A stretch of 64,000 nt of DNA from Lunularia cruciata (lineage: Eukaryota > Streptophyta > Marchantiopsida > Lunulariales > Lunulariaceae). Below are positions 3,031 through 64,000 of this stretch, piece after piece. The DNA lies in assembly GCA_948567375.1 (NCBI GenBank), contig OX419758.1, positions 5,027,001-5,091,000 on the forward strand. The letters are read 5' to 3'. Made by a program: the position numbers and the translations under genes. How positions within the stretch are numbered: the stretch's first letter is position 1; each line of letters starts with the position of its first letter. The notes beneath the pieces are model-generated. The model was not told the DNA's origin. It worked only from the letters and a program-made list of their open reading frames with translations, and did no database searches.

Positions 3031-3045
3031 TCACAATGACCTAAT

Positions 3046-5827: not shown

Positions 5828-6958
5828 AAAGGGCACAAAATAATGTGGTGGCATATCTATTCTCCAACCTGAAATCATTTTCCCCACTCGTTGGTGCAGA
5901 CATTTTGCCCAATCTACTTCCTCTCCTACAAACATTTGGTGAAAGAACACCGCCTGTTGCATCATAACATAAGTGCTTTGCTCTGGCTTGAACATTGCCA
6001 TCATCACACTTATAATCTTTCTCCTCTCAAGGTCTCTGTAACTATCCACCTTATACCCGTTCTTGGTGTGAGGTTGATTGAATGAGTTCCTCACTTTGGC
6101 AGTCTCCTTTAAAGCATCACACTTCCGATAGAATGGTACCTCCTTCCTCTCCTACTTCTTTCTCCAAGACTATTCTCCAATCCAATTCCGTCCATCAAGC
6201 CGGATTTCCCCTCTTCTCCTCGTACTTTGGCCCATCCTTGCAATTGCTTGCCGCAATTTCTACCATGAAACCTAGAAAATTGAAGTTTTAGTTCTAGGCC
6301 AAGAATGTGATACAAAGTTTGACAAGACTTCAATCCGTGCTACTACTTCTAATCTACAAAGTGCAAGTCCCCTCACCGCACTTTTCTTACTCACTTTTGG
6401 GGCCATTGTGTGTTTCCTCACCCTCTTCTTGTGGAAGATCATTCTCAAGATCCTAACCCACTCTTCTTCTTGTGGATTTGAAATTTGCATTACTTTGGGT
6501 TGACTTTGAATAGGGACAAGGTAGCATCTGGACATTGTGCTGCTTGCTTGCAGAACTCTTGATTTTATAGTCTTGTACAAATCGTTCATTCTTTAGTTGT
6601 TTCTTTGATTCACTAGTCATAGATTCTATAGGGTTGTTTCTTGTCACTATCAATAACTTCTTGATCTTGAGTTCATTACTTTCTTCTTGCATACTTTCTT
6701 GATTGACAGACTCGAAAGAAGTTTGTCACAAGTTCATTGGATAAGACTACATTGCTTGATACAAAGTCCCCTTCTTTGTTTCTTCTCTTGTCCATCTTGG
6801 GTCCTTTGGTCTTGACCCGAGGTTGACTTTAGGTTTGGCTCCAAACACACGCTTCTTTGTATTTCTTTCCCGTTTAGCCCTCCTTTGGCTTTACTAACAT
6901 ACTTCTTCCACCAAATTCCCTTCGAACTATCCAAAACCAGAAAAATGTGGGCACCACA
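5828..6958 (-). mobile_element. Giant-LTR element, 5' fragment of the LTR with U3 ORF start
   Basis: Minus-strand fragment beginning TGTGGTGCCCACA at 6958, the same start as the complete giant LTR that ends at 61642. An ATG at 6535 lies 423 nt in, close to the 413 and 406 nt in the two complete copies. The reading continues (with frame changes and stops) through 'CRLEVVARIEVLS' and the core 'TKNGYKVDSYRD', 'TYVMMQQAVFFHQMFVGEE', 'DWAKCLH', 'PPHYFVPF', then is cut at the chromovirus LTR at 5827. The start abuts the RNase H of chromovirus 2 at 6959, so the element had inserted there. Confidence 0.7.
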
Positions 6959-10472: not shown

Positions 10473-13400
10473 AATAGAGTCTGTATGAGAAATCTGCCCT
10501 ACCGCACCTAAGATATCCGAGCTATGCAAGTCGTACGGTCTACACACAACTGGAGCATCCGAAGAAACATCACCTAATGTGATTGCTCTCCTATGGATTG
10601 CACCAGCCACTGCCCTCTGTAGAGCAATGGATACACGCTGTCTAAAGTAAGCTACAAAGTATGAGAGTGAGAGTGGTACCCCCTGCCGCCTAACATGATA
10701 AGCCCTCGCGCACTCCCTGACAAATGTGTCAAATGCCGTGTCCATCGCTCCATATAACTCCAAGGCTAGAGGAACAAAGAGGTGACCTCGCTGCATGCCC
10801 CTGTACTTGGAGACCTTGCGACCTGCTGCTGCACTCGCCGCCCATCCAGGGGGATGGGTAATCACTCCCTCCGAAACTGTATCTCGCGTAGGGTCCGTCA
10901 CCACGACATCCGCTACTGTCACCTGATCATCTCGGACCAAGTATAAGTCTGCCCTGACACGTGTCGTCTGCAACGCATACGAACGCTCCCTCCAAGCCAA
11001 GTATCCACTCTCTCGTGCCATAGCAAACACTATGTCTCTAATGGCATCATGGGTAGCTATCCTCTATCCTCCAAAAGGACACCGTGTCATGTGGACCGCC
11101 GCTGCATCTAGTGTAGAACCACACTCACAAGTGAGTAGTGAAGATGCAGATGGGTGGACCAAACCTAGGCAAAACCTCATCGCTGTAGAGAAAGTAGCCG
11201 GTGCGAGTCGGAAAGCCCTAATGCATGGTCGAGCTAGGATCCACGAGCCTGCACCCTTGCCGGAGCAAGAGCGTAGACGTGCTCTAGTAGCCTGAGGAAT
11301 GGACGAGTCAACTAAGAGAGAATGTAGCGTATGCTCACACTGTCGCTCCATCAAGGAAGACTGTAGACCTCTAGTCCAATCTGATGATAGTGAAGCAAAC
11401 GGTGGAAAACCCTCTCGTGCTCGTGAAGATAGACTATCTCTCGTCTGCCGCAATAACACCTGGAGAGAAAAGGATCCTCCCTCCACCTCTGTCACATAAG
11501 TCTCCAAAACCGGCCTATCAGCAACCACAAAACGAGATGCAAGTAGGGGTGCCGAGAGAGCCCAACTACCCAAAAACGCTATAGGTGCCATCTCCTCCAT
11601 AGAAAGCAAGCCAACCCCACCACATGAGATCGGTAGAGCCGTCTGTCTACGTGCCAAATCCCCTGTCACACACTCAAAAGTCCCTGGTCCAATAATATCA
11701 CCAAAGACTCCCATAATCCTCCTATCAAATGCTCTCAGACGTGATAGGAAGGACGATGAGGGGGGAACTGTACGGATGAGGTAGGATGCTCGACGAGCAA
11801 TACTGGAAGAGAGTATACCAAATGCCACCTGCGGATCTCCTAGTAATGGAAGGTCATCCACATGGAGAACATCCTCTACAAGAGCAGCGTCCAAGAAGCG
11901 TGTGACAAAATCCTCCGATCCTACTGGCACTCCAAGAACACGAAGTCCCTCTGTGGATGTGATACACCCCTCTGGAAGCTCAAGGTGGGGAGGGATACCT
12001 AAAGGGGACCATGCCCTACACTTTGACACCTTGACTCTCAAGCCTACTAGATGTAGCTCGGTAGTCAAGTAGTCAAAGGCCTGCCTAATCTGATCTACCG
12101 GGCCTACGATGTGTGTATCATCTGCCAAGGATGGAAATACACAACCTGGCATGGCCAAAGTAGTAGACAGGAGAGCTCTAAAGTGAGCCATGGCAAATAA
12201 GGGCCCCCCCAAAGGATCTCTCTGACGTGTACCAACAGTTGACTCCAAGACGGTGACTCCCTCCTGTGAACCACCATGCTGGTAGTAAAGGGAAGCAAGA
12301 GAGCCATAAAAAGACCGCACAAAAGGAATGAGACTCGCCAAGGATCCACTAGCCTCCCTAAGCTCTCTAAAGATGGATGCACGTGAGACGCTATTAAAAG
12401 CGTTCTCAACGTCCACCTGTAGGACGACCCACTCCGGATGGATATCTAGGAATGCTCTAATGCCTAGAGATATAGCCTCACATCCTCTAGGTGTAGCTAC
12501 TCCAAACTGATGTGGACTAAGGTGCTGTCGAAAGTGAGAACGATGCTGAAGGACAATGGTACGACTGACCAAACGCAAAAAGATCTCTCCAATAGCGATC
12601 GGTCTAATGCCTCCAGTGTCCTTCTCGATCGCGAGAAGTCGACTAGCACCTAAGACCCGACTAACAGACATAGGAATATCTCCTCTCGCTACTGCTGCAG
12701 CCACCTGAAACAACTCGGTAAAACCACTAGAAGGATCATCTGCCTGGAAGCAATCTCTAAGGTGCTCATAAACCATCCCTGACAAGCCTCCTGAGGAAAG
12801 GCGAGGGGCAGTGCACAATGCTTGTGCAAATAGCGACCTATCAAGACATAAAGGCTGCTCTGGCTGATAATCTAAGACCTCTAGTGGTAGTCCCTCTACT
12901 GCTATAGGATGCAATGAGCGTAGGGAAGAGATGGTCTCATCAGTAGGACTCGCTATAGACAGAGGGTGTAGCGCTCGTGCTGCTCTACTAAACTCTCCCG
13001 CCTGACCCAATGTCCTACATCGTCGTAATCGAGTGGAATCTATGGTATCCTGTGGCGATGTCTGTCTCCTAAATCGTGTAGCCCTAACAGACTCCTCCTG
13101 AAGGGCTGCCCAATCCCCCGCTCGGAATCGACGAAATCTAGCCGCCACCTCTCTATGCCCCGCACGTCCCCCTCTAGCATAACGAAGACACCATCGAGGG
13201 AGTAGGAGGAATAGGAACCACGCTAACTTGTCCAAGGGATCACGTGCCAAACGATCCAATGGTAGGCGAAAAGCCTGTCTAGCCTCATCATGGAGTGTGC
13301 GGGGTAGCCTATGGAATAAACGTGGACATGGAAAACTAGTCTCAAATAACCCCAAAATGCAACCCGCCTGAGAAGCTAACCACTCCCACGAGTCGATCGG

Positions 13401-13631
13401 TATCCCTGGAACGATCAACGAAGGTATAGAAGAAGCGTGCGTAATCCCGAGTGTCACTGCTGTCGATGTGGTCGCTTGTCTCACGTGGACATCCCAAGTG
13501 GTCCAATCATAATCCTTGTGCATCCTTCCCACATGGGTCTTTACCCCTTGCGAGGTAAAGCGTCGGTGACACACCGGGCATGGTGTATCCCGACCCGCTC
13601 TAGGCGACCCCACATGGAAAGGTGTAGCCAT
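10464..13631 (-). CDS. ORF of REL-endo non-LTR retrotransposon (zinc finger, RT, endonuclease), one in-frame stop
   Basis: Numbering from the ATG at 13629-13631 (GCCATGG context), although the frame is open further upstream to 13718. Residues 18-38 form a C2H2 finger (C18, C21, H33, H38) that probably binds DNA. RT follows: 'GGIRPIAIGE', motif A with D407 in 'LQVDVENAFN', motif B 'RQRDPLGGPLF' (family Gly is Arg), and motif C 'SLADDTHIVG' with D504-D505. C-terminally there is a Cys-Cys-His-Cys knuckle (C835, C837, H847, C851), an in-frame TAG at codon 856 (11064-11066), and an endonuclease-like region with 'RADLYLVRDD' and 'VADVVVTDP'. The order fits R2/NeSL/HERO-type elements, which nick DNA with a restriction-like endonuclease. 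Without readthrough the nuclease half would be lost. The stop codon at 10464-10466 lies in the 3' hairpin. Confidence 0.88.
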
Positions 13632-14111
13632 GGCTAGCACAAGAAAAATGATAGTAACACATGATACTCTTCTCCGTATCTCCCCATATCTGCAAAACCA
13701 CAACCCCTCACATCCCAACTCACGTAAGAAAACAATCTCTCTCCCAACCCTAAAATCTATAAACTTTCATAACTTTCAATTTCCGTCTCCAAAATTTTCA
13801 AATTAAATTCCCATGGAACTTAATCATGAAAACCCAGAGATTAGAAATGAAAATTCACAACCCATCACTCTCAATGTATAATAATCACTCTCAACCCTAA
13901 AAAAACTAAAAAACTTCATAACTTTCTACTCCATTCTCCCTAGTTTTCAATCTAGGTGCCAATGGAACCGGAATTGAAAAACGAAGAGAATAGTCTATTC
14001 ACTCGAAGGCTACATGCTAGAGAGCACTCAGATTTTATCAAAATCGTCTCACGTCTCTCCTTCTCCTCTCTCGTCTCCACACTCTCCCCGCAGCTCCTCC
14101 CGCCGCCCGCC

Positions 14112-14174: not shown

Positions 14175-16324
14175 ATGGGAACGCAGCAACTCCTGGATAT
14201 GAAGATCTCGCGTGACACGTTGATGCTAAAATGCGCGGAAGAGAATTGTTCAATTCTTTAACGAGGAGCAAGAACTGCAGATAGCACCTAGGGCTGGCAA
14301 AGAAAATGCTAGCGCAGGAAATAACGTTCAGCGGAAGAAGATAGCCGCTTGTTTGGAGGACAGCACGCTTCCGTTTTCAATCCTGGTGAAAGAGATTGCG
14401 GAGAAGATGAACAGTAATGGTGATCATGTTACCTTAGTCTGTAAGGACTCTTGTGCTTTCGATTGGTTTGCGAGTATGCTACGGAATCACTTACACAGAT
14501 GCAGATGTTCTCGAGGACAATACCGCCACCAGCCTCTGGCGCTGGGAAGTAAGAGAATTGAAGTTTCTTCCAATATCCTACAGGGAAGAAATAGCTGAGC
14601 GGCGGCGAAGAAGGAAAAGAATAAATGAAAGGTTGTTGGATCTTTCTAGTGCAGTAGAGGTATTCAAATTCAAGCCGAACGATGTGAGCGATGAAGCTGC
14701 ACTTGCTAAGGCGAGGGAAATTCTTGCCAAGGGTGATGACGAGCTTACGCTTTTGTCTGCTAGAGTGGAACGGCTCTCGGGAAAATCTGGTGTTGCAAAT
14801 CAAGTGGATGGAGCGTCAGTGGTCACTGATGAAGGAACAAAGAAAAGGAGGAGGTCCGATCCTGAGGAGCAGGAAAGGATCAAGCCGGAGAGGATCCTGA
14901 AGCGACAGAGGATTGTGGAAGAGAGGGAGCAGAAACGAAAAGAGAAGGAAGAAGCGGAGAAGGAGCTCAAGCGCAAGGAAAAGGAGGAGGCTGATAAGAA
15001 AAAGCAAGAAAGGATGCCGAGAGGGTGTTGAGGAGGAAGGGAAAGGAAGAGGTGGAGCGGAAGAAGCAAGAGAAGGAAGCTGAAAGGGAACAGAAGAGGA
15101 AGGAGAAAGAAGATGACGAGCAGAGAAAGAAAATGGCTTTGAAGAAACAAGCCAGCTTCATGGACAGGTTTCTAGCGAGCAAGAAGGAGCCGTAAGAGCA
15201 AGCGAGTCAAGAAATCTCTGAGACAAACACCAAGGTTCCATCAGGTGCTGAAGAAGTGGAGAGGAAGGTGCAGCAGCCCTCAAGTGTACGAGATTCAGAT
15301 ATTTACTGAGGTAGTCAGGCGTATGGACGCTCTATTTCAGAGCAACGAGGATTTTGATCTGGATGAATTGTGGAAACAACATATAAGCACCTGGCAGGAG
15401 ACTCGTCAGCAGATGGCTTTGGGAAGACTTCCTGGATGGGGCACTCGTCGGAAGCCCAAAGCGATTGTCGCACCAGCGATTCGTCTTCATGGAGCTGGTG
15501 GGGATCCCCGAGCAAGTAGCAGCCACGATATGAGCCAGACGAAAACATCAGCAGCAAATGTAACGAGCCCGTCTCCTACTGCCTCTCCTCCGAAGGGGCC
15601 TCGAATTGAGTCTGACTTAGACGCCCTTGAGGATGTGGATTGGAAGGAGAGTTTTTCCGAATCTTGCCCCAGCACACCTTTGTCAGATTCTAAAAACTTT
15701 GTTTCTGATAGATATCTTCAGCTGCGCACCAAGAGGAAGAAGCTTTTCCAGTTTGACAAGAGTCATCGTCCTCCTTATTATGGAACTTTCTCCAAGAAGA
15801 GTGCTTTGATCAAGCCTCGGAATCCGTTGAAGCAGGTCCCAATGCTGGCGTACGATGTGGACAGTGATAAGGAGTGGGAAGAAGAAGAACCTGGAGAAAG
15901 CCTGTCCAATTTGGAGAACGATAAGGACGAGGGAGATGAGAGAGTAGACAACGAAGAGGAGGAAGACAGTCTACATGATGAGTTCATGGTGCCGGTTGGA
16001 TATCTATCCGAAGGTGAAGGAGTGCATATGGAGGGCGGAGCTGGAACTGCTGGAGATAACGCAAGAAACGGAATCTCTTATCATTCTCCTTCGTCAGGGA
16101 CGTGCAGTTCTGATATTGTTCCCAACGGCATGTCCCGGGAGCATCATGGTAAAGTTCTAGACAATGCAACTGAGCATGCTCTTAAGACGAATCGTCCTCG
16201 TCTCATTAACAACTTGGGCTGGGATTCTGAAGAAGAGGTCCTTCCTGCAACCAGGACAGAGGCTCTGGTTTTGGAAGCTCTTAGAATAAGAGACCTCACT
16301 CCCAGCAACACCGGAGTTCCTTGA
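14175..16324 (+). pseudogene. FAS1: FAS1 relic: CAF-1 p150-like large subunit, broken and intron-free
   Basis: FAS1 is the large subunit of chromatin assembly factor 1, which deposits H3-H4 on replicating DNA. Colinear matches are visible: 'KRIVQFFNEEQEL' (about 14236), 'TLPFSILVKEIAEKM' (14370-14412), 'VCYGITYTDADVLEDN' (about 14475-14525), a long Lys/Glu-rich helix (14830-15150), 'KKQASFMDRFLASKK' (about 15145-15189), 'FDKSHRPPYYGTFSKK' and the acidic 'DVDSDKEWEEEEPGESL' and 'DEFMVPVGYLSEGEGV'. Breaks: frame changes near 14235, 14440, 15005 and 15295, a TAA at 15193-15195, and a TGA at 16322-16324 before the expected C-terminal quarter. No GT-AG introns are needed over 2 kb, whereas the Arabidopsis gene is split into many exons, so it could be a processed copy; no poly-A or duplication was found. 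Identity is secure; non-function is well supported. Confidence 0.88.
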
Positions 16325-50399: not shown

Positions 50400-50805
50400 T
50401 GTGGTACATACATTTTTATTTTTGTGAGTTTTTAGAGAAGAAGTGAATTGTTGAAGCCAAAAGGAAGAAAGACGAGAAGAATTGTGGGTTTGGATCCAAA
50501 CTGAGGAAGTAAAATTCATGGTAGAGGAAAAAAAGACTCAGATTGGATTGAAAGTGCAATAGACCTAAAATAAGGTTACTTTGCATTAAAATGATCAACT
50601 TGATCCAAAAACACCTTACCAACTTTAGCTCGGGCCGTACCAACCAATAAGGTATAATCAGTGAAATGGCTACTTTGTGTTAGGATAAATTTGAGAGTGA
50701 CAAGAGTAAGTCATGCAAAACATGTGAGTTTTGATTAAGGCTTGATTGAAGAAAGACTACAAATTGGAGAAATATAAAATTGAGACTTAGCAAGGGAAAT
50801 TTTCA

Positions 50806-53343
50806 ATGCTAAAGCAATATCATTTTCCTTTGAAGAATTGTCTTCAAGGAATTAGAATCATGAGCCAAGTCCCGGGGTTAATTTGTGAGAAATCAGGAGT
50901 TAGTGAACACACTATGCCAATGAAGGGCAACAAATTCTGGACTGCAATGAATTGCAGTCAAGAATCCTGCAATGTTGAGGTTAGATATGCTAGCTAGGAT
51001 CAAAGTCTTGAGCCAACTAAGGATCATGTTTCTGGCCTGGAACTGGAACTTGAGTTTTCTAGAGTTCATGGTAGAAATTACTAGTAGTAATTGTATAGAT
51101 GGTCCTAAGGTGGAAGAGAAGAGAGGAAATATGACTCGATGGATTGAGTCAGATTGAAGACTTGTGTTGGTAAGATATGCAAGCAAGTAGACAAGATCAT
51201 ATTTCTGATTGGGTTGAAGAGTACCTTCAATGCAACTTGAATGAAGAACGTGTATAAGATAGAAACCTATAGAGACCCAATGAAGCAAAGTATCATTAGG
51301 GCTCTGATGGCCATGTTGAAGCCAAAGTGAACCACCTATGTTATGAAGCATTAGGCGGTTTTCTTTCACCTCATGTTTGCAGGAGAGAAGGTGAATTGGG
51401 TAAGGTGCTTCTACCACAAAACAAGACAAATGATTCCTTTGGGTTTCCTACCCCATTACTTTCTACCTCTTGCAACACATCTTTACTTGAGTTTGAACTT
51501 GCTTAGTTTTAAGGAGAGAAAGAAGATGGTTTCATATTTCCATCCAAATTTTTGTTGAGATGCAAATGATAAAGAACAATGTTATATGGCAAAAATCAAA
51601 GAAGGAGATGAGTACTTTGCCAAAATTGGATATGAGAAGATGGTGATAATTTCCATCCCAAAGTCAAGGAAGAGTAGACCCAAGGAATATGGTATACTAG
51701 GTGAAGAGAAGGACAACTAGGAGATTGACCTTGAGACATGAGATAATGGTGGTCAATTTATCATTGGAGTTGAGTCGGAGGCAGAAGTAGAGTCCAACAT
51801 GGGGACTTTGAGGAAGAAAAACTCACTTTGAAGAGTAAGGAGTCAAGCAATGAAAGTTAAGGGAAGCTTGAAGTTCAATATTCAGCCAAAGAAATGGCTG
51901 AGGAGGAGGATTAGGAGTTCCATGTGGAAATTGAGCATATGGAAGGAGGCGATACCCTTACTTAAAATTACCCAAAGATGACATTCTAGAAGAGAGAGTG
52001 GAAGAACCAAGTGTGGTGTTCTAGAATGAAGTAAGATTGAGAAGGAGTTTGCAATCTGCTAGTGCAGGGCAGAGTTGAGCAAAAGATGACGAAGGAAACT
52101 CAAAAGAAGTTGGCCTAAAGATAAGGAGATTGAGAATTTGGGTTAAGACACCATTGAATGTATTATTTATGGAAGTTGGCAACAAAGATGCATTCCAAGA
52201 CATAAACTACCCATCAAGTGTAGTTTATCCCTTACTAGTGCATTTGCAGGAGAAGATGAAGGAGATGAAGAAAGATCATCCAAAGGTGAGGGATGAGCTT
52301 CAGGTGGTGAAGAAGTTGAGTAATGAAGTCCTTCAATTGAAGGAGCAATTGACCAATGTGAGGAGGAAGCCAAAGTCCTTTAGGTGGATGTGGTGATTTG
52401 CTCATAGAGTGTAAAAGACTTGCATGAGAGTTTCTAAAAGTGTGGAGATTTCTTGGAATGCCAAAAGGAAGAGTTGAAGGAGCAAAAGGTAATGTTCAAG
52501 AAATTGAAGGAAGAATTCAATGATGCTCAACTCAAAGTGATGCATTCTAAGAAAAGAGCACTAATAAATGAACGTGCAAGGGAGTAGTTGAGGTCAGTTG
52601 CAGCAGAGAAAGATCAGGCCTTGCAAAATGAGAACTAGCAAGTTGAGGTCGTGAAGAAGAGAGGTTGTGGGATATAGTCAAGAGCTAAAAAGCTCAAGTT
52701 GTGCCCTTGGCTGAAGAGCGAAAGAAGATAGAGAGGAAGCATGTTGAGGAGTTGAGGATGCTTTAGAAGAAGTTGAAGGAGTAGATGACTCAAGGCAAGT
52801 CAACCTCATAGAAGGAGTTGGGATCAATGGAGGAGATTGTCATCAAATTGAAGGCAATATTCAGCACTGGAGCTAGAGTGTAATGAGAGGAATCATACTT
52901 GCATGAGTTGAAATTGTTGGTGTAGTAGAATTGGAAGCATTAGGTGAAGGGCATCAAATTGAATCATTTGTTGATTCATCTTAGAGATAGAGTAAATAGA
53001 AAATGATGAAGTAGGAGATAATGTTTGTCTCAAATTAGATTTGGTAAGATCAGACTTAGATAAACTTGGTCATAGACTAAATGAAACTGTAGTAAATTGA
53101 CCCAAAGTAGTCAAAGGCTGGAGTGCAGTGACTTTGGGTGAGTAACCCAAGTCCACTAAAGAAGTTAGAGTAGAGAAGGAGAAAGTAATTAGTATACCAA
53201 TGACTTCAGTCTCAGTCCAGACCAAAGAAGTGTTGGATGTAGAAGAGGATGTAGAAGTAGTAGATGAACTCAAACTATAGGAGGTGCTTGTAGAGGATTT
53301 GGGTGTAGAAGCTAGAGTCAAGGTAGTACTCAGATTGGATTAG
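50806..53343 (+). pseudogene. U3-encoded coiled-coil protein gene, degenerate copy
   Basis: About 846 codons from a conserved ATG (406 nt from the LTR start) to a TAG at 53341-53343, with many stops and some frame changes. Its N-terminal part aligns with the minus-strand copy, including 'LRLDMLARIKVLSQLR'. The core is clearest at 51240-51540: 'YRDPMKQ', 'TTYVMKH', 'AVFFHLMFAGEKVNWVRCFYH', 'PHYFLPLATHLYLSLNLLSF', 'MVSYFHPNF'. Downstream it is Lys/Glu-rich with coiled-coil character (about 52230-52800). Family not recognised. Reading the same element strand as the LTR, it lies in U3, upstream of the LTR TATA box. Confidence 0.7.
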
Positions 53344-53463
53344 TAAGTAACAATTTTCAGATTTGAAGTGGTGCAAATGTAGATAGAATGATTCAAATCT
53401 AAGGATCAATAGAAAGTGGTTGAAGTGGTTTAGATAGTTTTGATAATTGTTGAGTGCTTTGCC

Positions 53464-53471
53464 TATATAAA
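53464..53471 (+). promoter_or_regulatory. TATA box of the giant LTR
   Basis: TATATAAA, 121 nt after the U3 ORF stop. In the solo copy TATTTAA (58543-58549, minus) lies 117 nt after the same stop. The distance from TATA to LTR end agrees once the 60 bp of extra tandem units in this copy are removed, so it is the likely start region of the element's genomic RNA. Confidence 0.65.
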
Positions 53472-54079
53472 GTAGTCATTCATAGTGTATTATATTTAGT
53501 ACTGATTTTAAGTTGAGTAAAGCAAAGAGCTGAACTCAATGCTTGTCATTTTAGCTTAAGTCCAAGTACAATCCTACATGTGTGTTTATGAGTGTATGTA
53601 GAAGGTTGGATTGCAATCAGAGTGTGTTAGATTTTAGATTTTGCAGCTTTGGTGTTCATTCTATGTTTTTGATCTTGAGTGGATGGCAGTCGGACCCAAT
53701 GCCTTCATGGATCTATGAAGAACTATAGTGTTGTTAGTATCTATAAGTTGTGATTGCAGGCACTAGGCTGATGCAAAGTCATTTTGATTGAGGAAGTTGT
53801 ACCTTTAGTGGAGGGCTGGAATGCAATTCTAAGGCAAAGTCACTTTGTGGTGAAGTAGCCTTCTTCAAAGCAATTACATCATCACAATCAACATCAATTT
53901 GGAGAGGATCTGAAAAATTGTGATTTTGGGTAACTTTTAATTGTGACAAGAGTTGTTGTTGAGCACTTGTTACTCTTTTCTAGGTGTGGTTTCTAACCAA
54001 GAGGCTAAAGAAAAAATCAAGAAGAACTACATTGTCACATTTTACTTTGTATTTGACAATTCTTGACCATTATCTCTAT

Positions 54080-54169
54080 GAGAATGAACAATTACTCGTT
54101 AATTACTTTGGGAATGAACAATTACTCAATAATTACTTTGGGAATGAACAATTACTCATTGATTATTGC
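54080..54169 (+). repeat. 30-bp tandem triplication within U5
   Basis: Three near-identical 30-bp units around GGAATGAACAATTACTC. The solo LTR copy has a single unit at the homologous place, so the expansion happened in this copy or its lineage. Confidence 0.85.
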
Positions 54170-54204
54170 AAAAGTGATATTTGCTAGGTTGTCACATGAT
54201 TTTT

Positions 54205-54222
54205 TGGCGCCGCTGCCAAGGA
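54205..54222 (+). other. Primer-binding site, tRNA-Asp type
   Basis: TGGCGCCGCTGCCAAGGA, close to the TGGCGCCG-TGCC primer sites known from Athila/Tat-group plant gypsy elements. It starts 8 nt after the LTR end and identifies 50400-54196 as a 5' LTR. Confidence 0.7.
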
Positions 54223-54450
54223 GTAGTCCTGAGTCAAAAGGACAAGAAGAAGAAAGACTACCCATCTATTATGCCAACCAACAACTTTTAGTTGCAGAGA
54301 AGAATTAGTACTACTATTGAAAGAGAAACACTTGGAACGGTGTATGCTTGCAAGAATTTTTGCCACTTGTTGAGATAAAAATTGTTGGGATACAACTTTG
54401 TAGTCCATGTGGACCATTATAAATTACAATATTTGGCAAAAAGGTGGATT
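54223..54450 (+). pseudogene. RNase H remnant joined directly to the primer site
   Basis: Only about 30 nt after the primer site the sequence reads a gypsy RNase H: 'LPIYYANQQLLVAEKN', 'RETLGTVYACKNF', 'GYNFVVHVDH', 'LQYLAK', with a few frame changes. Gag, protease and RT should lie between, so about 3-4 kb has been deleted. The Athila/Tat-like wording suits the primer site type, which suggests that it belongs to the giant-LTR element. Confidence 0.6.
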
Positions 54451-55142
54451 TTTCCTATGAGCTGGCCTGTCTCTCACTCAAGATGAACCTCTTATGGCTA
54501 TTATGGTAGTGCACCATGGACTAAGAAGGCAAGGAAACTCAACTCTATCATACTCCTCCAAGGCTAACACTCCAAGACTCAAGACATTGCTCACTAGAGA
54601 GCTTAATGAAAGGGAGATAGTTGCAATGAAAGGATGATGAGTACTCCTTCACCCCTTGTTTATATACTTGTGAAATAGTTACGCACCAAAGTTACTAATT
54701 ACTAGAGTAACTCAAGTTACTAGGCTAAAAGTCAAGTAAAGTCAAAAAGTATAAAGGAATATCCATCCACATGAGCATATTCCATTGAGCATGTGATCTT
54801 ATCTTGACCCAACCACTAAGTCAAGGATTCCTTCACATGGGCTATCCTTGGACTATAGAAGAATCCAAATCAAAAAGGCTTGCGGGCCCCAACGTTCTAA
54901 ACTCTTTCTTCAAAGCCAAACACCTAGGAATAATACCAAGTTAACACACTAGAATCCAAAATAGTAATGCTCATCTTTTCCATTTCCTCTAAAGTAAGGT
55001 CCCCTCTATCTTAGATATGACTAACTTTAGCTAATCATGACTAATGTAGAACCATCCTTTATCTATATATAAATAATATCTCTCAAGTACTTATAATACC
55101 AAGCTAAATATCACAATACCACACTTATGCACAAATGTAACA
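54451..55142 (-). mobile_element. Possible 3' LTR of the gypsy element at 55180-63896
   Basis: Lies where a minus-strand 3' LTR should be. The right border reads ...TGTAACA at 55136-55142, which is TGTTACATTTG on the minus strand, preceded by a purine-rich tract. The left border is not clear and no second copy is in the window to confirm it. Confidence 0.4.
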
Positions 55143-55169
55143 ATCGGACTAAGTTTTCACTTTATCCTC

Positions 55170-57865
55170 AAAATGAAGGTCTCTCTACCTTCTATGATAC
55201 ATCTTCAACTTATCATGGTTAATCCTATTAAAGTATCTTCCTCCAAAATCCTTGAGATCATAGGTGTAATTTCCCCACACCTTCTCCACTATGAAAGGTC
55301 CAAACTACTTAGGCAAAAACTTCTTTTGTACTCTCTTGAATCAAAAAGAATCAAACAAAATTACCCAATCACCTTCTTTGAAAGGTTCCACCTTCTTCTT
55401 GCCTTGCCTCTTGTCATAGCTCTCCTTTTGTTTCTTTTGGGCTTGCTCCACTTGAACCATAGCAACTGCTCTTGCCTCTTTCAAATTCATGAGTTGTTCC
55501 TTCCTTGACTTCTCTGCATCATCTCCTTGTGCTTTCTTCAATCTCTTATGAATGCTTTGGAAGGTAGGAAGATCAAGTGAATAGGTAGGGCAGACTCAAT
55601 ACCATGAAATGGAGAATATCCGTTGGAAGTATTCATGGTTGTCCTATACTCCCACAAAACTGCATGAATCCTCTTGTTCCAATGATGTTTAGCCCCCTCT
55701 ATTTTTGCATCTTTGGCCACCATCATGCACAAGGTCTGATTGGTTCTCTTTGCCAAGCCATTGGAATTTGGCTTATAGGATGTAGTTACTTTGTGTGATA
55801 GAGAAATGTCATAGCATAGCTGTAGTGATGCTTCCTGTAAACTCTCCTCCTCTATCAAAAACCAACTCCAACGGGCATCCAAACCTAGTGATAATGCATT
55901 CATAAAGAAATCTACCAACTTCATCTTCATTCTTGTCCCTCAATGGTCTAGCCTCAACTCACTTGGTAAGGTAATCAATAACTACCACAATGTACCAATT
56001 GTTCCTTGAGGTTCTATTGAGAGGACCTACAAAATCAATTCCCCACTTCTCAAAAGGTCCTAGCAATGGTATTGATCTAAGTGGTGGAGTGGATATAGAC
56101 TTTCTAGAAAAAGCTTGACAAACATGACAAGTTTTGCAATAATCAAGACAATCCTTGAAAGTCCCTCTCCAATGGTAATCTGCATCAAGAATTTTGAAAG
56201 CAGCCACCTTTCTTGCAAAGTGTTCTCCACATACTAAACCTTCATGAAACTCCATTATGAGTTGGATAGACTCTTCCTTACCCATTGCTCTTCAAAGTAG
56301 ACCATCTACTCCTTGGTGAAAAAGAATATCATCCACCATTGTGTAAGGTCTAGATCTTGCTGCAAGGGCCTTCCTCTCCCTAGCATGTGTTCTTCTAGAT
56401 AGTTACCTCTTGTCACAAAATCCACAATCTCCTTGTACTCCATTGGAACCTCTTGATTGATTGAGATTGTCATGAGCTCCTCATCTGGGAAGGAATCATC
56501 CACTAGTTCATCTCTATCATGATCATAGGCCCTAGATAACAAATCTGCATTTGCATGTTTCTTCCTTGGCCTATCCTCAATGGTATAGTCATACTCAGAC
56601 AAGAGTATCATCCACCTTGCTAGTCTCCCTTCCACATTAGGCTTGTTGAAGATGTACTTCAAAGCCTTGTGATCTATGACAACGGTGGCTTCTCTCCAAT
56701 CAAGTAGTGTCTCAACTTCTTGAGACCGAAGATCACTGCCAACCCTTCTCTTCTCCGTGACAAAGTAGTTCTTCTCTGTTAAAACCATCTGCATACTAGC
56801 ATAAGCTATTGGATGATCATGCCCATCTTGGTCTAATTGACTAAGAGAGCATCCTATAGCTACATTAGAAGCATTAGTGTAGAGGATTAAAGGCTTACTC
56901 CAATCAGGTTTAGCAAGAATTGAAGCTACAACAAGGGATTTCTTGAGCTCCTCAAAAGCTTTGAGAGCCTCCTTGTCTTCTAGAATCACCATGTAATCTA
57001 CACCCTTCTTCATATAGATGGTCAATTCATAAGCCATGTTAGAAAATGAGAAGATGAACCTCCTATAGTACCCAAAAATTCCCCAAGAATTGGCATAACT
57101 TTATCAAGCTTGAAGGGAATAGAAGGTCTAAGATTTTCCTCACCTTCTCAAGATCAATTGCTATTCCATCCTTGGAGATGATGTGCCCCAAAACTGGACC
57201 TTCTTCACATCAAAAAATGCACTTCTCTGGGGTCAGTGATGCATTTGCCTCATCCAAGCATTGCAAGACCTTGATTAGGTGCTCAAAGTGCTCCTCCTTG
57301 CTCCCATAGACACAAAATTCATCAATGAAGTCTCTCACAAATTTCCCAATGAAATGTTCAAATACCTTGTTCATGAACCGTTTGGAATGTGGCTGGAGCA
57401 TTGCAAAGCCCAAAAAGCATGACCTTGAAAATGTAAGTTCCCCAAGGTGTGGTGAATGTGGTGAGTTGTTGATACTCTGGTGCAATCTTGATTTGGTTAT
57501 ATCCACTATAACCATCTCCAAAACTATACCTCTCATGACCTGTAACCTCCTCCAAGATCTCATCAATGAATTGCAATGGGTAGTAGTCCTTCTTGCTTAC
57601 AGCATTGAGCTTCTTGTAATCCACACATACCCAAAGCTTGTCATTCTTTTTCTTCACAATGACAATTGGAGACACCCATTCTGAATTCTCCACCTCAAAG
57701 ATAAATCCGGCCTCCTTGAGTTTATCAATCTCCTCCTTCACCACCAAAGATATTGGTGGGCTAATGCAACATTGCTTTTGGCGGATTGGTCTTGCATGTG
57801 ACTCCACCTCTATCTTGTGCCCCTCCAAGGTGACTTCCTTCAAATCCTTGTAACTAAAAGCAAAC
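55170..57865 (-). pseudogene. Athila/Tat-like gypsy pol, second half: RT, RNase H, integrase
   Basis: Minus strand. RT starts at 'HVFAFSYKDLKEV' (57865), with 'WVSPIVIVKKKNDKLWVCVDY', 'DGYSGYNQIKIAPE' (first catalytic Asp present), 'FGLCNAPATFQ'; at 57310-57325 the usual catalytic Asp pair reads Asp-Glu ('DFIDEFCVYG'). RNase H is at 56306-57037 ('YASMQMVLTEKNYFVTEKRR', 'VVIDHKALKYIFNKP', 'KKHANADLLSRA'). Integrase follows: zinc region at 55990-56285 ('CHVCQAFSRKS', 'GIDFVGPL'), core at 55538-55930 ('YKPNSNGLAKRTNQTL'), C-terminus at 55180-55541. No chromodomain. Several frame changes. The DGYSG motif is typical of the Athila/Tat branch. The other half of the ORF lies beyond the solo LTR at 57871-61642. 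Confidence 0.85.
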
Positions 57866-57870
57866 ACATG
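57866..57870. repeat. 5-bp target-site duplication, left copy
   Basis: ACATG at 57866-57870 and again at 61643-61647, flanking the solo giant LTR. Removing the insert and one copy joins 'IFCKFIH' to 'VFAFSYKDL' in frame, restoring the RT reading frame of the host element. Confidence 0.9.
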
Positions 57871-60800
57871 TGTGACAACCCGGCAAATATCACTTTTGCG
57901 GTAATTGAGTAAGTAAAGTTTGTTCCCGTAGAGATACGATTCAGAATTGGTTGAATACAAAGTCAAACAGTAACATGTAGTTCTTCTTGGTTGCGTCTTT
58001 AATCTCTTAGGTAGAAACCACACCCAAAAGAGAGTAACAAGCACTGATTTGCAGTCTTGTCACAAATTAGCACTCCATAATCACAACTCCATCAAATCTT
58101 TCCAAACAATCTTGATTGTGATGATTTAGGCTCTCCCAAAAATGGCACTTCATTGCAAAACAACTTTGACTCAGAATTGTGTTCCACCCCTCCACTGAAG
58201 GCACAACTTCCTTGATCAAAATTGTTTCACATCAACTTCGCACTGCACTCACAAATGCAGAATACTACCAACACTACAATTCCTCTCAGATCTGTCAAGG
58301 CATTGCTCCGATTGCACTTCACTTAGGATCAAACACACAAAATGAAGATCACAGCTGTGGAATCCAACATCCAACAAGCACACTGACTTGCACTTTGAAT
58401 TTCTCCAAACACTCACAAACACAATTTACAAAGTTGATATTCGGAATCAAGCTCAAGCGACGAGCACTACTTCACAGCACTTTGTTTTATCTATTCTCAG
58501 AAATAATGAGCATTGAACAACATGATACTACAAATGCCACTCTTAAATAGTGAATCAATTGAAAATTCTAACAACTATACCGTTCTACAACAACTCTTCT
58601 AACCTGCAGATCCGAAATGACAATACACCTCTTCATATCTACCTCTTCAAATCTCAAATTTATTACTACTCCAATTTGATGTCTACTTCTTCCTCGGCTT
58701 TCAAACCTGAACCCAAAGTAATCTTACTTCCTATCACTCTATCTTCGGGTTTCATATCTTCTACTTCTTCTATCAGATCCAGCAATTCTCTTTCCTGATC
58801 TGAAATTCCACTAGTGGGTAATCTATCTAACTCCTCATCTCCCGACCCACTCTTCTCTAATGTCTCCATCGATAATTCCAAAGACATTTGCACTCCTATG
58901 TTATCTACTTTGGGTTTTGCTCTAACATCCTTCTGAAGTTTTTCTATCTCTATTTTCACTAAGTCTAATCTAATTGAAATGTTATCTTCTACTTCTAATA
59001 TCTTCCGGTCTACCTGAGTTCTGAGACTAATTAACAAGGCGTTCATATTTGTGTCTTTTGCCTGTCTTCGCCTCGTCTCCTGCACCAACAACTTCAACTT
59101 GTGCAGTCTCGTCTCCTCAATCCAAACACTGGCTTCTGTACTTAGCATTGCATTCATTCGGAGTACTATCTCCTTCAATGGCTCCAATCTGGTCTTCCTC
59201 TCACGCTCACGATCTGCAAGCCAGTCCTCTCGGTACATTGCCAACTCTGCTTCAAAGTCGGCTTTCACCGTCTCCTTCTCCTTCTCCTTCTGTACAATCT
59301 TCTCCTCCTGATTACAAAGTAATTTGCGTAGTCGTTCATCTTCTCGGTGTCGTGCCGCCAACTCTCTTTTCCAGAGTTGCTTCTTCTCCTCGACACTCTC
59401 CATCACTCTATTGAGCTCCTGATCCTTGCCATAGCATGGATTACTTCTACTCTTGAATCAGCAAACTGCTGCTTCAAGATCTCGTACTCTACTACTTATC
59501 TTTCCCTTGCTATGTCACTCTTCCTCACAAGATCCTCTCGATAGCTCAATTCTCTCTTCAGGTCTTCAATTACCTGACTTCTCTCTACTGCCTCCGCTCG
59601 TAGTACTTCCCTTTCCTTCTCACCTCGGGTTATACTCTTCTTCAACTCCAAGTTTTCTTCTTCTAATTGCGCTAATACCTGCAACACAGTCATCACCTTC
59701 GGACATGTCGACTGCATTTCCTTCTTCTTATACTCCATCTTTACCAGTAAGGGACATACCACATCCTGCAGGTACTCCACTCCATTGCTTGTGGTTACTT
59801 CTTTGCGTGTGGCCACTTCTCTTCGTACTTTGTGTTCATCTGATACTCACCTTTTTCTCTGCAATCTTTGTATTGGAATTGATACCTCACTTCTCGAGCT
59901 TTCTCCTACCTCTTCCTTCACTTTACTTGGCCCCGCTTCACACTTCGCCTTACATCTCGAGCAAACTCCTCGCTGTACTTCGATCTTCTTCTCTTTGGGC
60001 ACAATTACTTTGTCTTCTAATTGTGTGTTGTCTTCGGCTTCTATCTTGGCTCGTACTTCTTCTTCGTATTCTTCAGCCGCTGGTGCCAATGTCATCTCTC
60101 CCCCTTCATCACTATCATTGCTCGTATCTCCGCTCTGCAGCGTTAGCTCAAGCTCCTCCTCGTGTTCCGAGTCTTCAGTTTTGAGCTCGGCATCTCCTTT
60201 TGAGTCTTCATCCTCCAACTCAATTACCATCATACTTCTCCTCGGGTTGCCTCTCTGCATCTCTCGAGGTTTCTTGATGTCTTCGGCTTCCCCTTTCCAA
60301 CTTCTCTTCTTCGTAGTCGGAGTACTCACTACAACCTCCACGTTCTTCCCCGTCTTTGCATAGTAATCATCAGTGCTCCTGATCTGCAAGATGTATTGCT
60401 GCTCCTCGACGTCGACGTCTCTTCTCAAGTCGGGATGGAAGTGAGACACCATTCTGTTTTGCTCCGCCAAATTGAGCAAATTCAACCCGAGGTAGAAATG
60501 TGTTGCAAATGGCACGATGTAGTGGGGAGGCGACTTATCCCGCAAATTCCACACCATCTGCCTTGTTCTCCCATGGAAGCACCTCGCCTAATTAATAGGT
60601 TCTCCTACAAACAACTTATGGAAGAACACTGCTTGGTGCTTCATCACATAAGTTGTTCTCTCCGACTTCAAGATTACCATGAGAGCACTCACAATCCCTC
60701 TCTTCACTGGATCCTTGTAACTCTCAACCTTATACCCATTCTTTGTTCTCTTCAAAGAGAAAGTGTCTCTCACCTCCTGAGTCTCCTGAGCTATCTCTCC

Positions 60801-61642
60801 CTTCCCCAAGAACGTGGCTCCCTGCTCCGAGCATGCCTCCTTCCCGAGTACAAGTCTCTAATCCGACTCTGTCCAGCAAGCCGGATTTCCTCTCTTCCTT
60901 TCTTCCTTGGGTCCATCGAGACACTTACTCTCAATGATTTCTGTCATGAATCCTAGAAAACTTACATTCTAGTTCAATGCCAAAAATGTGATCCAAAGTC
61001 GGCTCAAGACTTCGATCCTTGCTATTACGTCTAACCTCCAAATTGCATGATTTCTCACTACGAATTTGGAGTTCTTCTTTCCTCCTCCCATTTCTTCTAC
61101 TTTCTCCCTCTCTCTTGACTTCACTCTCGCGACTTCTCCCTTGTGCACTAACACAATTCCAACTCTATTTCCCTTCCCCCGATCACCTGCAAGACGACTT
61201 CTCAACGGCAAAGGAAAATTACTCGACATTTTGTCATTGCAAGTTCAATTTTTATAGAGTTGTGCTTCTTCGTCTTTCGTCACTTCGAGTTTCTACCAAG
61301 AAATCACACCTCTGGCATGCAACTGTCACTGTCAATAAACCTTCATGCATATGGACCGCCAGTTTTTAAACGGCCCCTTCTTGAATTTCTTGCCCCAACG
61401 AAAGGTTGTTAGACTGTCTTTGCCTCGGGTTGAGCTCCTTCCAATACGAAGACAATTTACTTTGGGTTGTATGCTGACAGGGCATTTCCAAGTACTTTGC
61501 CTTAAGACCCGAAGTCACTTTACTTTGGGTTTCATCCCGAAGACTCTTTTCTTCACCTTCTTTGGCCATGCAGGCGCAATCTGACTTCTCTATACACTTC
61601 TTCTCCTTTATTTTGAAAAAAACAAAAAATGTGGGCACCACA
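57871..61642 (-). mobile_element. Giant solo LTR, 3,772 bp, inserted in a gypsy pol gene
   Basis: On the minus strand it begins TGTGGTGCCCACA and ends GGTTGTCACA, has TG...CA termini and a 5-bp target duplication. Only one LTR is present and no primer site or pol belongs to it, so it is a solo LTR left by LTR-LTR recombination. It contains the U3 ORF (61229-58666), a TATTTAA box at 58543-58549, and about 680 bp of R-U5. It is homologous end to end with 50400-54196 (opposite strand) and at its start with 5828-6958. It is richer in GC and CpG than those copies, so probably younger. Confidence 0.85.
58666..61229 (-). pseudogene. U3-encoded coiled-coil protein gene, best-preserved copy
   Basis: About 854 codons from ATG 61229 to a stop at 58666. 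N-terminus is basic ('MSSNFPLPLRSR'), then 'WRLDVIARIEVLSRLWITF'. Next comes a conserved core (60560-60790: 'NGYKVESYKD', 'TTYVMKHQAVFFHKLFVGE', one TAG where other copies have Trp, then 'PPHYIVPFATHFYLGLNLL', 'MVSHFHPDLRRD'), an acidic region and a basic Cys cluster ('CSRCKAKC'), then a long Glu/Lys/Arg-rich region with heptad character (59816-59496, 59406-58900). Damage is limited to about three stops and two or three frame changes. I do not recognise the family. The core resembles in layout the plant mobile-domain/'putative plant transposon protein' type, which is only a guess. Confidence 0.72.
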
Positions 61643-61647
61643 ACATG

Positions 61648-62300
61648 GATGAACTTACAGAAAATCTCCTCAAATCTCACCTGCTCCTCCTTGGTAACAT
61701 TTGGGCCATACTTGAGGGTAGATAACCTCCTCTCTATCTCCTCAAGTATCAATGGTGATTTATTTTGGTCCTTCAAAACCTCTGGCTTAGGTGCAAAATC
61801 CATAGCACACAAGGGATATACATCTGAATCAGATTCAAATTCATCCTCCTCCGTAGAGGTCTCCTCTTCTATGCTTGTGTCCACACTTGAAGCTCCTTCT
61901 TCAGAATCTGATTCCCAATAATTAGAAGATTGTGTATCTGAATGTGAAATGTTGGTAGTTAGAAGAACTATGACTCTATGATTTGATGGCCCAATCCTCA
62001 AGTACCTTTTGTGATATCGATCAATTGCATGTGCTGCTCTCAACCATGGCCTCCCAAGAAGTAGTCATAGCTTGAATCCTTCAAGACTTGGAAAGTCATG
62101 AGATTTTGAACTATTATAATTGAAACTACCACTTTATCCATCACCCCTACTGGTCGAACTTGTTGTTTGTTTGCCATGCTTACCACAAATGTTGAAGATC
62201 TTGAGGGTATCATACCCAACTTCTTCATCAACCTTTCTTACGTAGCATTCATTGATGATCCTCCATCAACCAATGCATCCTTGATGTTGTGACCATTTAC
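61648..62300 (-). pseudogene. Athila/Tat-like gypsy: protease and protease-RT linker
   Basis: Minus strand. The protease active-site region reads 'DALVDGGSS' near 62255-62285, with DGG replacing the usual DTG, as in several plant gypsy groups. It is followed by a stop, 'LGMIPSRSSTFVVSMANKQQ' and a frame change into 'LLGRPWLRAAHAIDRYH' (about 62010-62055). An acidic linker (61790-61950) leads to 'VTKEEQVRFEEIFCKFIH' at 61648, where the giant LTR has inserted. The reading resumes at 57865. Confidence 0.82.
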
Positions 62301-62336
62301 TCTCATATCTATCTTGGAGGCATATTCACAAGCCTC

Positions 62337-63896
62337 CTATGGTGTTGGTTTGGCATCCACCACCCCCATTGATATTGGAAATTTTGCCTTCTTCTTCCTC
62401 TTGCTCCTTGTAGCACTCAAACCACCTCTAAGCTCCTTTCTCAAAGTAGGATTCAAAACAATCAATTGGCCCATGTTAGCCTTGTGACTATCAACATCCT
62501 CCAAGACACTATAGTTCCATTGTTGCTTTGAGATCAAGAAGTCTTCCATCTCCAACTTCTTCCTTGGAGTCTTTGTTGTTGATGGTGTTGAAGTGCTTGT
62601 ATGAGTGCTCCTAGTAGGCATAGGAGTATCTTGGCTGGGACTAAATCCTTGAGAAGAGAGTACATCCTCTACAAAACAAACTCTCTTCTTCTCTTGTGCC
62701 AAAAGCTCCAAATTAAGACTCTTGGAGTTTGAGCACTCTCCCTTCTCATACTTGCTTTCAGCCACATCTATAGATGTTATCCCCTTACCTTATTTTGGAT
62801 TAGGATCCACTTGGGTTTCACTACCTCCCTCTATTGGCTCCCTCATAATCCCTTCCTCCATGGTAAGTGGAATTTGGGCAATATTTTTGGATATGGCCTC
62901 TTCCTCCACAACCAAAACAATTTCTCTCATTGAAATTGTTGGTTGGTTGGCCTCCTCTATATGGATAACTTCTATAACTCTTAGGCCCTCTTCCCACATT
63001 CTAATCCACCTCTCTCTTCTCCCATAGTTGCACCACATTGATCTTGAGATCAGACAAGTTGTTTTGTGATGGTTTAAAGTGGATCCTTTGGTGGAGGTGT
63101 TAGACCTAGAGCAACTACTACTTGTGGTGCAACCTTTACCACCAAAGTATCAGATGCTCCACCATACTTGTAACCTTGAAGAGGATGCACAACCTCCTTC
63201 ACCACCAAATCAAATTGCAATCTTGATTGATTACAAATTGCAATCTTGATAGCTTCAACCTTGGAAGAAGGTTTCTCATATCTCACCTTGCTTCTAATTT
63301 GTGGTATCAATCCTCACACAAAATTCTTGGTGAGCATGGCCCCTATGCCAATCATAGTAGTCTCCACATCATCCCCACCCTTCCTCAACACTATGCAAAA
63401 TTTGGACTCTAACTTCTCCACTCTTTCCACATAGATTCTCACTTTCTCTCCATCTCCTTGTTTGAGAAAGGTAACCTCACTCATCAATCTCTCATAACTC
63501 ATCAATCTCATAAATCTCTCATAATAAAGTTTTCAATGAGTGTTGAAGTCAAAATCTCCCAAGACTCTTCTTCCCCATCTCTCCTCTCTCTCTTTTGGTA
63601 TTTTGACTCATACCATGTAGGTGCTGCATCCTCAAAGAAATTTGGTAATAATGAGGCCCACTCATTCTTCCTCCTCTCATTGTTTCCTATGCACGCTCTC
63701 TTGAAGTCTCTCACAAAGGCTTCCATATCTTCTCCATCCTTGCAAAAGAAAATCAGAAGTTTCCCTATCTTAACTCCTCACTATCTTTCTTTTCTCTCAA
63801 TTTTTTTCTTTTTCTCTTTTCTTTTCTCTCACTCTATAACTAATAGATTATATACATGAATAAAACCATCTGAGAATAATCCACTCTAGGGAACAC
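62337..63896 (-). pseudogene. Athila/Tat-like gypsy gag with CCHC zinc knuckle
   Basis: Minus strand. Capsid-like region at 63314-63726 ('KRACIGNNERRKNEWASLLP', 'FEDAAPTWYESKY', 'LTSTLIENF', 'TFLKQGDGEKVRIYVERVEK'), a linker, and a complete zinc knuckle at 62878-62919 (C-x2-C-x4-H-x4-C in 'CFGCGGRGHIQKYC'). A second, mutated knuckle lies just upstream (around 62985-63030, 'CNYGRRERWIRMWEEG', two Cys and one His lost). The stretch at 62337-62765 leads to the protease. Frame changes separate the blocks. The 5' LTR lies outside the window. Confidence 0.8.
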
Positions 63897-64000
63897 AAAA
63901 GTTTCAAGTTGCTCCAAGATTTCTATAGCAACATCAATTCCTAGAGTGCATATTAATCAAACTCTCATGGATAGTTTATCCATAAATTGAAAGATTATCT

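What the first reader, a model, noticed from the sequence alone, without database searches (positions are those of the whole stretch)
50400..61642. A retrotransposon family whose giant LTR encodes a predicted coiled-coil protein in U3
Two complete LTR copies (50400-54196 plus; 57871-61642 minus) and one partial copy (5828-6958 minus) share termini TGTGGT...TTGTCACA. In all three an ATG lies 406-423 nt from the LTR start (50806, 61229, 6535). In the complete copies the ORF is 846-854 codons and ends 117-121 nt before a TATA-like box, so it lies in U3 and would be carried at both ends of every element. One copy has a primer site right after the LTR and another has a 5-bp duplication, so these are LTRs and not chance neighbours. 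U3-encoded proteins are known in a few animal retroviruses; I know of no well-described plant case of this size.
Basis: partly seen in the sequence, partly recalled or inferred. Interest (0 to 1): 0.92.

Follow-up and report, generated by a model that had tools for sequence, protein, structure and literature searches.

The report
Jumping gene carrying protein in LTRs
A family of retrotransposons in this genome carries, inside each of its long end repeats, an 858-codon protein gene that natural selection preserved while the family was active, an arrangement known from a few animal retroviruses and not found described for plants in the papers searched.

Summary
The finding holds up. The two complete window units are LTRs of a Ty3/gypsy element. 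Unit 57871-61642 (-) is a solo LTR: a 5-bp duplication flanks it, and without it the host element's frame reads on for 198 residues with no stop. In the source genome, 31 aligned copies carry the ORF: ATG 31 of 31, end stop 29 of 29 with data, no frame change 22 of 31, 858 codons in full-length frame-keeping copies. Elements with two such LTRs exist; one has an outer 5-bp duplication. Variants shared by four or more copies hit codon positions 0.175/0.135/0.357; single-copy variants 0.228/0.227/0.204: selection while active, near-neutral decay after insertion. dN/dS between subfamilies is about 0.3.

Corrections: all 31 copies are broken (3-11 stops). "U3" is unproven: a second, more constant TATA box lies 27-34 nt before the ATG, so the ORF may have its own mRNA or lie in R. 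The coiled coil is only partly supported. Function is inferred.

The parts
50400..54196 (+). LTR copy A, 5' LTR of a deleted element (TGTGGT...TTGTCACA)
   Evidence: followed by primer site at 54204
50773..50779 (+). TATA box 1 of copy A, 33 nt before the ATG
   Evidence: TATAAAA invariant in A, B, C
50806..53343 (+). broken LTR ORF of copy A (ATG 50806; end stop TAG 53341-53343)
   Evidence: (alignment of end stop)
53464..53472 (+). TATA box 2 of copy A (TATATAAAG)
54204..54217 (+). primer binding site TTGGCGCCGCTGCC (resembles tRNA-Asp 3' end, recalled)
   Evidence: a like site follows LTRs L003, L007, L044, L056, L060, L065
54220..54383 (+). RNase H fragment of the same family, joined to the primer site by an internal deletion
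   Evidence: 79-82% to L041:5183-5349 and L040:5105-5250
57871..61642 (-). LTR copy B, solo LTR inside the pol of another Ty3/gypsy element
61643..61647 (-). target-site duplication CATGT (upstream copy)
57866..57870 (-). target-site duplication CATGT (downstream copy)
61248..61256 (-). TATA box 1 of copy B (TATAAAAAT), 27 nt before the ATG; 29 of 31 aligned copies identical
58666..61229 (-). LTR ORF of copy B (5 internal stops and one frame change; end stop TAG at 58668-58666)
58669..59454 (-). C-terminal open piece, 262 aa; residues 7-179 predicted as one helix
60330..61067 (-). N-terminal conserved domain region (all-helical, poor model; no Pfam match)
58541..58549 (-). TATA-like box 2 of copy B (TATTTAAGA), 117 nt after the end stop
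5828..6958 (-). truncated LTR copy C with TATA 6569 and ATG 6535, broken ORF

Best explanation
SHOWN: a Ty3/gypsy LTR retrotransposon family with ~3.78-kb LTRs carries an 858-codon ORF wholly inside each LTR. It lies between a constant TATA box (27-34 nt before the ATG) and a ~0.8-kb conserved tail holding a second TATA-like box. While the family was multiplying, the ORF was under purifying selection at the protein level; after insertion, copies decay almost neutrally. Of 28 copies whose ends were examined, 18 are solo LTRs, so the ORF with its TATA box remains in the genome without gag-pol. INFERRED: the LTR has two start sites. Start 1 (TATA 1) makes a short mRNA of the LTR ORF, which ends at the polyadenylation site of the same LTR. 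Start 2 (TATA 2) makes the genomic RNA; there the same poly(A) site is too close to the cap to be used, so transcription runs on into gag-pol. The product (helical N-terminal domain, acidic linker, long helical C-terminal part) is an accessory protein that helps the element, most likely as a scaffold in particle or RNA handling or against silencing. It would be comparable in role to the extra ORFs (eORF, ORF0) that other plant elements hold inside.
For: Ends and 5-bp duplications: 14 of 28 copies by script plus 4 by eye. Empty site. Two-LTR elements with primer site, purine tract and gag-CCHC-RT-RNase H-integrase matches; outer duplication GCTAA on the C12 element. LTRs of the C1 and C12 elements are sisters (100/100, 100/98). 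ORF kept: ATG 31/31, end stop 29/29 with data, no frame change 22/31; stops 4 versus 79/49/60 in 15 copies. Selection: shared variants 457/1716 at positions 1+2 versus 428/858 at position 3, Fisher 5e-31; 5' flank p 0.56, 3' flank p 0.49; dN/dS B-A 0.345 (0.26-0.44) and B-C 0.30, shifted frames 0.93-1.34. TATA 1: 29/31 identical and invariant in A, B, C.
Against: No intact ORF among 31 copies (3-11 stops each). No transcript data. The first 46 codons show no codon-position signal (p = 0.43), so the start may be the second ATG (B 61091). The two LTRs of the C11 locus are not sisters and its outer flanks do not match. One of three control frames of the B-A flanks also gives dN/dS below 1 (0.69, interval 0.49-0.92). 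Single-copy variants lean to position 3 when only sites without shared variants are counted (0.32/0.30/0.41). Coiled-coil support is uneven. Two-promoter use and function are inference.
Confidence: 0.72

Rival explanations
1. The ORF lies in R, not U3: TATA 1 is the only promoter, U3 is ~400 nt and R is ~3 kb, so the LTR protein is the first ORF on every genomic RNA and is repeated at its 3' end.
For: TATA 1 is more constant than TATA 2 (29/31 versus 21/29 exact) and invariant in A, B and C. Retrosat2 of rice is described with U3 1-244, R 245-2266, U5 2267-3292 (PMC3485330 section 8).
Against: A TATA-like box 2 occurs at the same place in A and B and in 21 of 29 copies with data. From TATA 1 the start would fall within a few nt of ATG 1, leaving almost no leader unless the second ATG is used.
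Confidence: 0.35
2. A host gene or fragment was captured recently by the LTR and carried along without function for the element.
For: No significant match to any Pfam family; gene capture by LTR elements is known in general (recalled).
Against: A and B are only 65% identical in the ORF with dN/dS ~0.35, and shared variants in 31 copies show constraint: long retention under selection, not recent capture.
Confidence: 0.08
3. Chance open frame: the ORF is a by-product of composition (GA-rich strand) and codes for nothing.
For: All 31 copies have stops; an antisense stretch of ~261 codons is also open in 6 of 8 copies.
Against: In 15 copies the other sense frames hold a median of 49 and 79 stops against 4. 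The third-position excess is confined to the ORF and is strongest in widely shared variants. dN/dS in the shifted frames is 0.93-1.34.
Confidence: 0.02
4. The LTR borders are misjudged and the ORF is an internal extra ORF like eORF-5'F or ORF0.
For: Plant elements with extra ORFs and very long LTRs are described (PMC6317226, PMC3485330).
Against: Solo units with exact 5-bp duplications hold the ORF. The primer site follows and the purine tract precedes the ORF-bearing unit. Both ends of the C1 and C12 elements carry it.
Confidence: 0.01

Closest known systems
Mouse mammary tumour virus sag (ORF in the U3 of the LTR) and, in part, HIV nef / foamy virus accessory genes (recalled; many of the 15 papers listed for 'LTR ORF' concern MMTV, listing only)
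   Same: protein gene inside the LTR, present at both ends, with a promoter other than the genomic one used for it (recalled)
   Different: animal retroviruses; sag is ~320 codons and a superantigen (recalled). Here a Ty3/gypsy element, 858 codons; similarity to Sag was not tested directly
Retrosat2 / RIRE3 / RIRE8 / FRetro3 (rice, long LTRs plus ORF0)
   Same: LTRs of ~3 kb or more and an extra fast-evolving ORF of unknown function (PMC3485330: mean Ka 0.2574, Ks 1.6471 for ORF0); short U3 and very long R described
   Different: ORF0 is stated to lie upstream of ORF1 in the element (passage), not stated to lie in the LTR; no sequence comparison was made here
OTA (Athila/Tat/Ogre/Retand) elements with eORFs and LTRs up to about 5 kb
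   Same: large LTRs, extra ORFs that are often without known domains, 5-bp duplications, tRNA-Asp among primer types (PMC6317226)
   Different: [quoted passage not shown] the passages and section I read do not place them in LTRs. Lineage of the present element not determined

Membership tests
LTR retrotransposon | two direct LTRs beginning TG and ending CA flanking a coding region | tested here: met
   C12 element; C1 element, whose 3' LTR lacks its last part; sister LTRs. The C11 pair is not sister, not counted as clean
LTR retrotransposon | target-site duplication | tested here: met
   solo LTRs 14 of 28 by script, 4 more by eye; C12 element GCTAA. Not seen at the C11 locus; not testable at C1
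LTR retrotransposon | primer binding site after the 5' LTR and polypurine tract before the 3' LTR | tested here: met
Ty3/gypsy order | gag, zinc knuckle, RT, RNase H, then integrase | tested here: met
   Pfam on pieces: gag and CCHC in L039, CCHC, RT, RNase H, integrase in L041; no protease family matched
OTA / Athila / Tat lineage | RT-RH-INT phylogeny; aRH domain for Tat | not tested
   no named plant reference sequences at hand; only the tRNA-Asp-like primer site (recalled) points there
U3-encoded accessory gene (MMTV sag type) | ORF inside the LTR | tested here: met
U3-encoded accessory gene (MMTV sag type) | ORF upstream of the genomic RNA start (in U3) | tested here: inconclusive
   TATA boxes before and after the ORF; no transcripts
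U3-encoded accessory gene (MMTV sag type) | protein homology to Sag | not tested
   no named comparison made; Pfam scan gave no significant family

The most novel reading that the evidence does not exclude
Every LTR of this Ty3/gypsy family, solo LTRs included, is a self-contained gene cassette (own TATA box, 858-codon ORF, terminator in the same LTR) making a trans-acting accessory protein. Solo-LTR formation therefore multiplies helper genes instead of leaving dead scars, and choice of start site decides between helper mRNA and genomic RNA.
Probability: 0.35. Interest if true: 0.86.

Novelty: new variant of a known kind. Interest (0 to 1): 0.74.

Why it matters
LTRs of retrotransposons are usually treated as regulatory DNA, not as coding DNA. 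A protein gene kept by selection inside the LTR means that solo LTRs, usually seen as the end state of element removal, can leave behind a gene. It also gives a simple, testable picture of why some elements have LTRs of 3-5 kb. The first test needs only transcript ends from the source organism.

Tried and rejected
Led nowhere: Pfam on pieces and on longer stretches with X at stops (nothing significant); PDB by sequence with the N-terminal 238 aa (best E 0.3); protein database searches with the N-terminal 238 aa and the 607-aa stretch (none at E <= 0.01; a control with the neighbouring element's RNase H found 28 relatives, so the database seems thin for this kind of genome); viral contigs with an 89-aa piece (none); bacterial promoter scan (not informative); N-terminal fold (mean pLDDT 43.5, not used for a fold search). 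Literature for ORFs inside LTRs: searches gave no plant case that I could find. Eight of the papers they listed were opened by passages only: PMC1560396, PMC12037069, PMC4016481, PMC7319988, PMC5408684, PMC5408686, PMC11117352, PMC13195028; none of those passages describes an ORF inside an LTR. The rest of the listed papers, apart from PMC3485330, were seen as search listing only; some searches were wider searches. Considered and rejected: chance ORF, misjudged LTR borders, recent gene capture (see rivals). In one search the 3' ends of L045 and L047 were cut wrongly (identities 0.890 and 0.935 there); corrected, and one search gives 0.940 and 0.933. Never answered: the genome-wide protein search for this ORF, so whether an intact copy or a host homologue exists outside the copies examined is unknown. 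The 31 copies are strong matches to copy B and the LTRs of three element loci, not a random sample; L069 and the duplicates L046 and L048 were dropped before counting.
Full report
What was checked. A (50400-54196, +) and B (57871-61642, -) are homologous from the first base (TGTGGT) to the last (TTGTCACA). C (5828-6958, -) shares the start and is cut short. A search of the window against itself and a translated search showed no further copy in the window at the thresholds used.

LTR identity. B is flanked by CATGT on both sides, and joining its flanks with one CATGT gives an uninterrupted 198-residue frame of the RT region of the surrounding Ty3/gypsy element. B is therefore one precise insertion of a single LTR. 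A is followed after 7 nt by TTGGCGCCGCTGCC, which resembles the 3' end of a plant tRNA-Asp (recalled). Two nt further begins a stretch 79-82% identical to the RNase H region of two element loci of the family, so A is a 5' LTR whose element lost its inside.

The family in the genome. The window is part of a 565.8-Mb assembly. Copy B's LTR has 48 listed matches there, a lower bound since 37 of 13,577 candidates were scored. Ends of 28 of the 48 were examined as a set (L001-L008, L050-L069). In 14, an exact 5-bp duplication flanks the LTR by script. In 4 more (L051, L057, L067, L068) it does so by eye once a changed terminal base is allowed. 5 are followed by the primer site, 2 are preceded by a GAGGGAGGGGGTA tract (one of them by eye), and 3 are unclear. 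Elements with an LTR at both ends lie on C1 (6,170 nt between the LTRs; the 3' LTR lacks its last part) and C12 (with a nested element inside and GCTAA on both outer sides); the LTR pairs are 94.0% and 93.3% alike and sisters in the tree. A third locus on C11 also has LTRs at both ends, but they are only 81% alike, are not sisters, and show no matching outer flanks, so it may be composite. Pfam finds gag and a CCHC knuckle in the C12 element and CCHC, RT, RNase H and integrase in the C1 element, in Ty3/gypsy order; no protease family matched. From the other side, a gag-leader probe gave 40 listed places. Of the first 6 other than the C1 element, 3 have the LTR start at the expected ~3.78 kb upstream and 3 do not show it in the 201 nt read, one of these showing an inverted LTR piece instead. 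4 of the 40 have one of 63 listed LTR starts 5.4-6.2 kb downstream.

The ORF. In 31 aligned copies (27 of those 28, plus four LTRs of the element loci; L069 and two duplicates dropped) the ATG is present in 31 of 31, the end stop in 29 of 29 with data, and 22 of 31 show no frame change. Full-length frame-keeping copies span 858 codons. Each copy has 3-11 internal stops, median 5, so none is intact. In the 15 copies of exactly 2,574 nt the ORF frame has a median of 4 stops, the other sense frames 79 and 49, shuffled sequence 60. In 12 copies, 20 of 32 codon columns with one to three stops fall into four classes that fit C-to-T or G-to-A decay of methylated DNA (inference); the other 12 are scattered.

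Selection. Variants shared by four or more of the 31 copies, which mostly arose in active ancestors, hit codon positions 1/2/3 at 0.175/0.135/0.357. Variants seen in a single copy hit them at 0.228/0.227/0.204. The widely shared class has 0.181 in the 5' flank and 0.179 in the 3' flank. For variants shared by two or more, 457 of 1,716 first and second positions against 428 of 858 third positions gives Fisher p = 5e-31; the 5' flank gives p = 0.56 and the 3' flank 0.49. Among sites without shared variants, single-copy variants still lean to position 3 (0.32/0.30/0.41), so some terminal branches include an active phase. Between subfamilies, dN/dS is 0.345 (95% interval 0.26-0.44) for B-A and 0.30 for B-C. 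The shifted frames give 0.93-1.34, the B-A flanks 0.69-0.92 (the lowest with an interval of 0.49-0.92, so not fully neutral-looking) and the B-C 5' flank 0.83-1.30. A and B are 65% identical in the ORF and 74% in the 3' flank. The ORF was thus a working protein gene of the element over a long time and decays almost freely once inserted. The first 46 codons carry no clear signal (p = 0.43), so the true start may be the in-frame ATG at 61091.

Promoters. A TATAAAA box lies 33, 27 and 34 nt before the ATG in A, B and C; it is one of four runs of 7-8 fully conserved columns in the part before the ORF, and TATAAAAAT is exact in 29 of 31 copies. Three arrangements fit: two promoters, only the first (ORF in R), or only the second (ORF in U3). 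Rice Retrosat2 has been described with a 244-nt U3 and a 2-kb R (PMC3485330 section 8), which makes the R arrangement a real possibility. I favour two promoters: the short RNA from the first would end at the LTR's own poly(A) site, while RNA from the second starts too close to that site to use it, as known for retroviruses (recalled). This is inference; no transcript data were available and the poly(A) site was not located.

The protein. No Pfam family matches significantly. The N-terminal region is predicted all-helical but with low confidence (pLDDT 43.5). The middle is acidic. The C-terminal 262 residues are predicted as one helix from 7 to 179 (mean pLDDT 78.5, pTM 0.34, from a single sequence), which suits a coiled coil. 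The periodicity test is significant in only one of two segments (p 0.015 and 0.21) and a second heptad measure in none. Extra ORFs of plant elements are likewise mostly without known domains (PMC6317226 passages).

Compared with what is known. [quoted passage not shown]), and ORF0 upstream of gag-pol in the Retrosat2 group (PMC3485330, passages and sections 5, 6, 8). ORFs inside LTRs are known from MMTV and other animal retroviruses (recalled; listing). Searches of the held library showed no plant or Ty3/gypsy case; eight listed papers were opened by passages and none bears on it. Subscription papers are mostly not in that library. That the source organism is a plant was not tested here.

Limits. 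The protein search of the own genome did not complete, so intact copies or host relatives beyond the examined copies are not excluded. The copies examined are biased to B's subfamily. The protein database seemed thin for such genomes (control).

Noticed in passing
window 59453-60184 and 59785-60363 (+), opposite the LTR ORF of copy B: Long antisense open stretches; a ~261-codon antisense stretch recurs in 6 of 8 first LTR copies. Probably a shadow of the acidic codon usage of the sense ORF.
   Followed up: partly
window 15245-16324 (+): ORF of 359 aa with a CAF-1 subunit A dimerization domain (E 3e-22), probably part of a host chromatin-assembly gene; could help name the organism.
   Followed up: no
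window 11064-13718 (-): 884-aa open frame with a reverse transcriptase domain; looks like a LINE-type element (by eye).
   Followed up: no
genome C12:3519010-3526482, C7:30913073-30920536, C2:66463813-66472403: LTRs of this family inserted into or abutting other LTRs of the same family in opposite orientation.
   Followed up: no
LTR start, e.g. window 61642-61630 (-): The LTR begins with a perfect short inverted repeat TGTGGTGCCCACA followed by a run of T, kept whole in 10 of the 12 copies shown.
   Followed up: no
window about 54384-64000 (-): A second Ty3/gypsy element on the minus strand (RT and RNase H; edges by eye) lies next to element A's RNase H fragment and itself carries solo LTR B: apparently three-level nesting.
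   Followed up: partly
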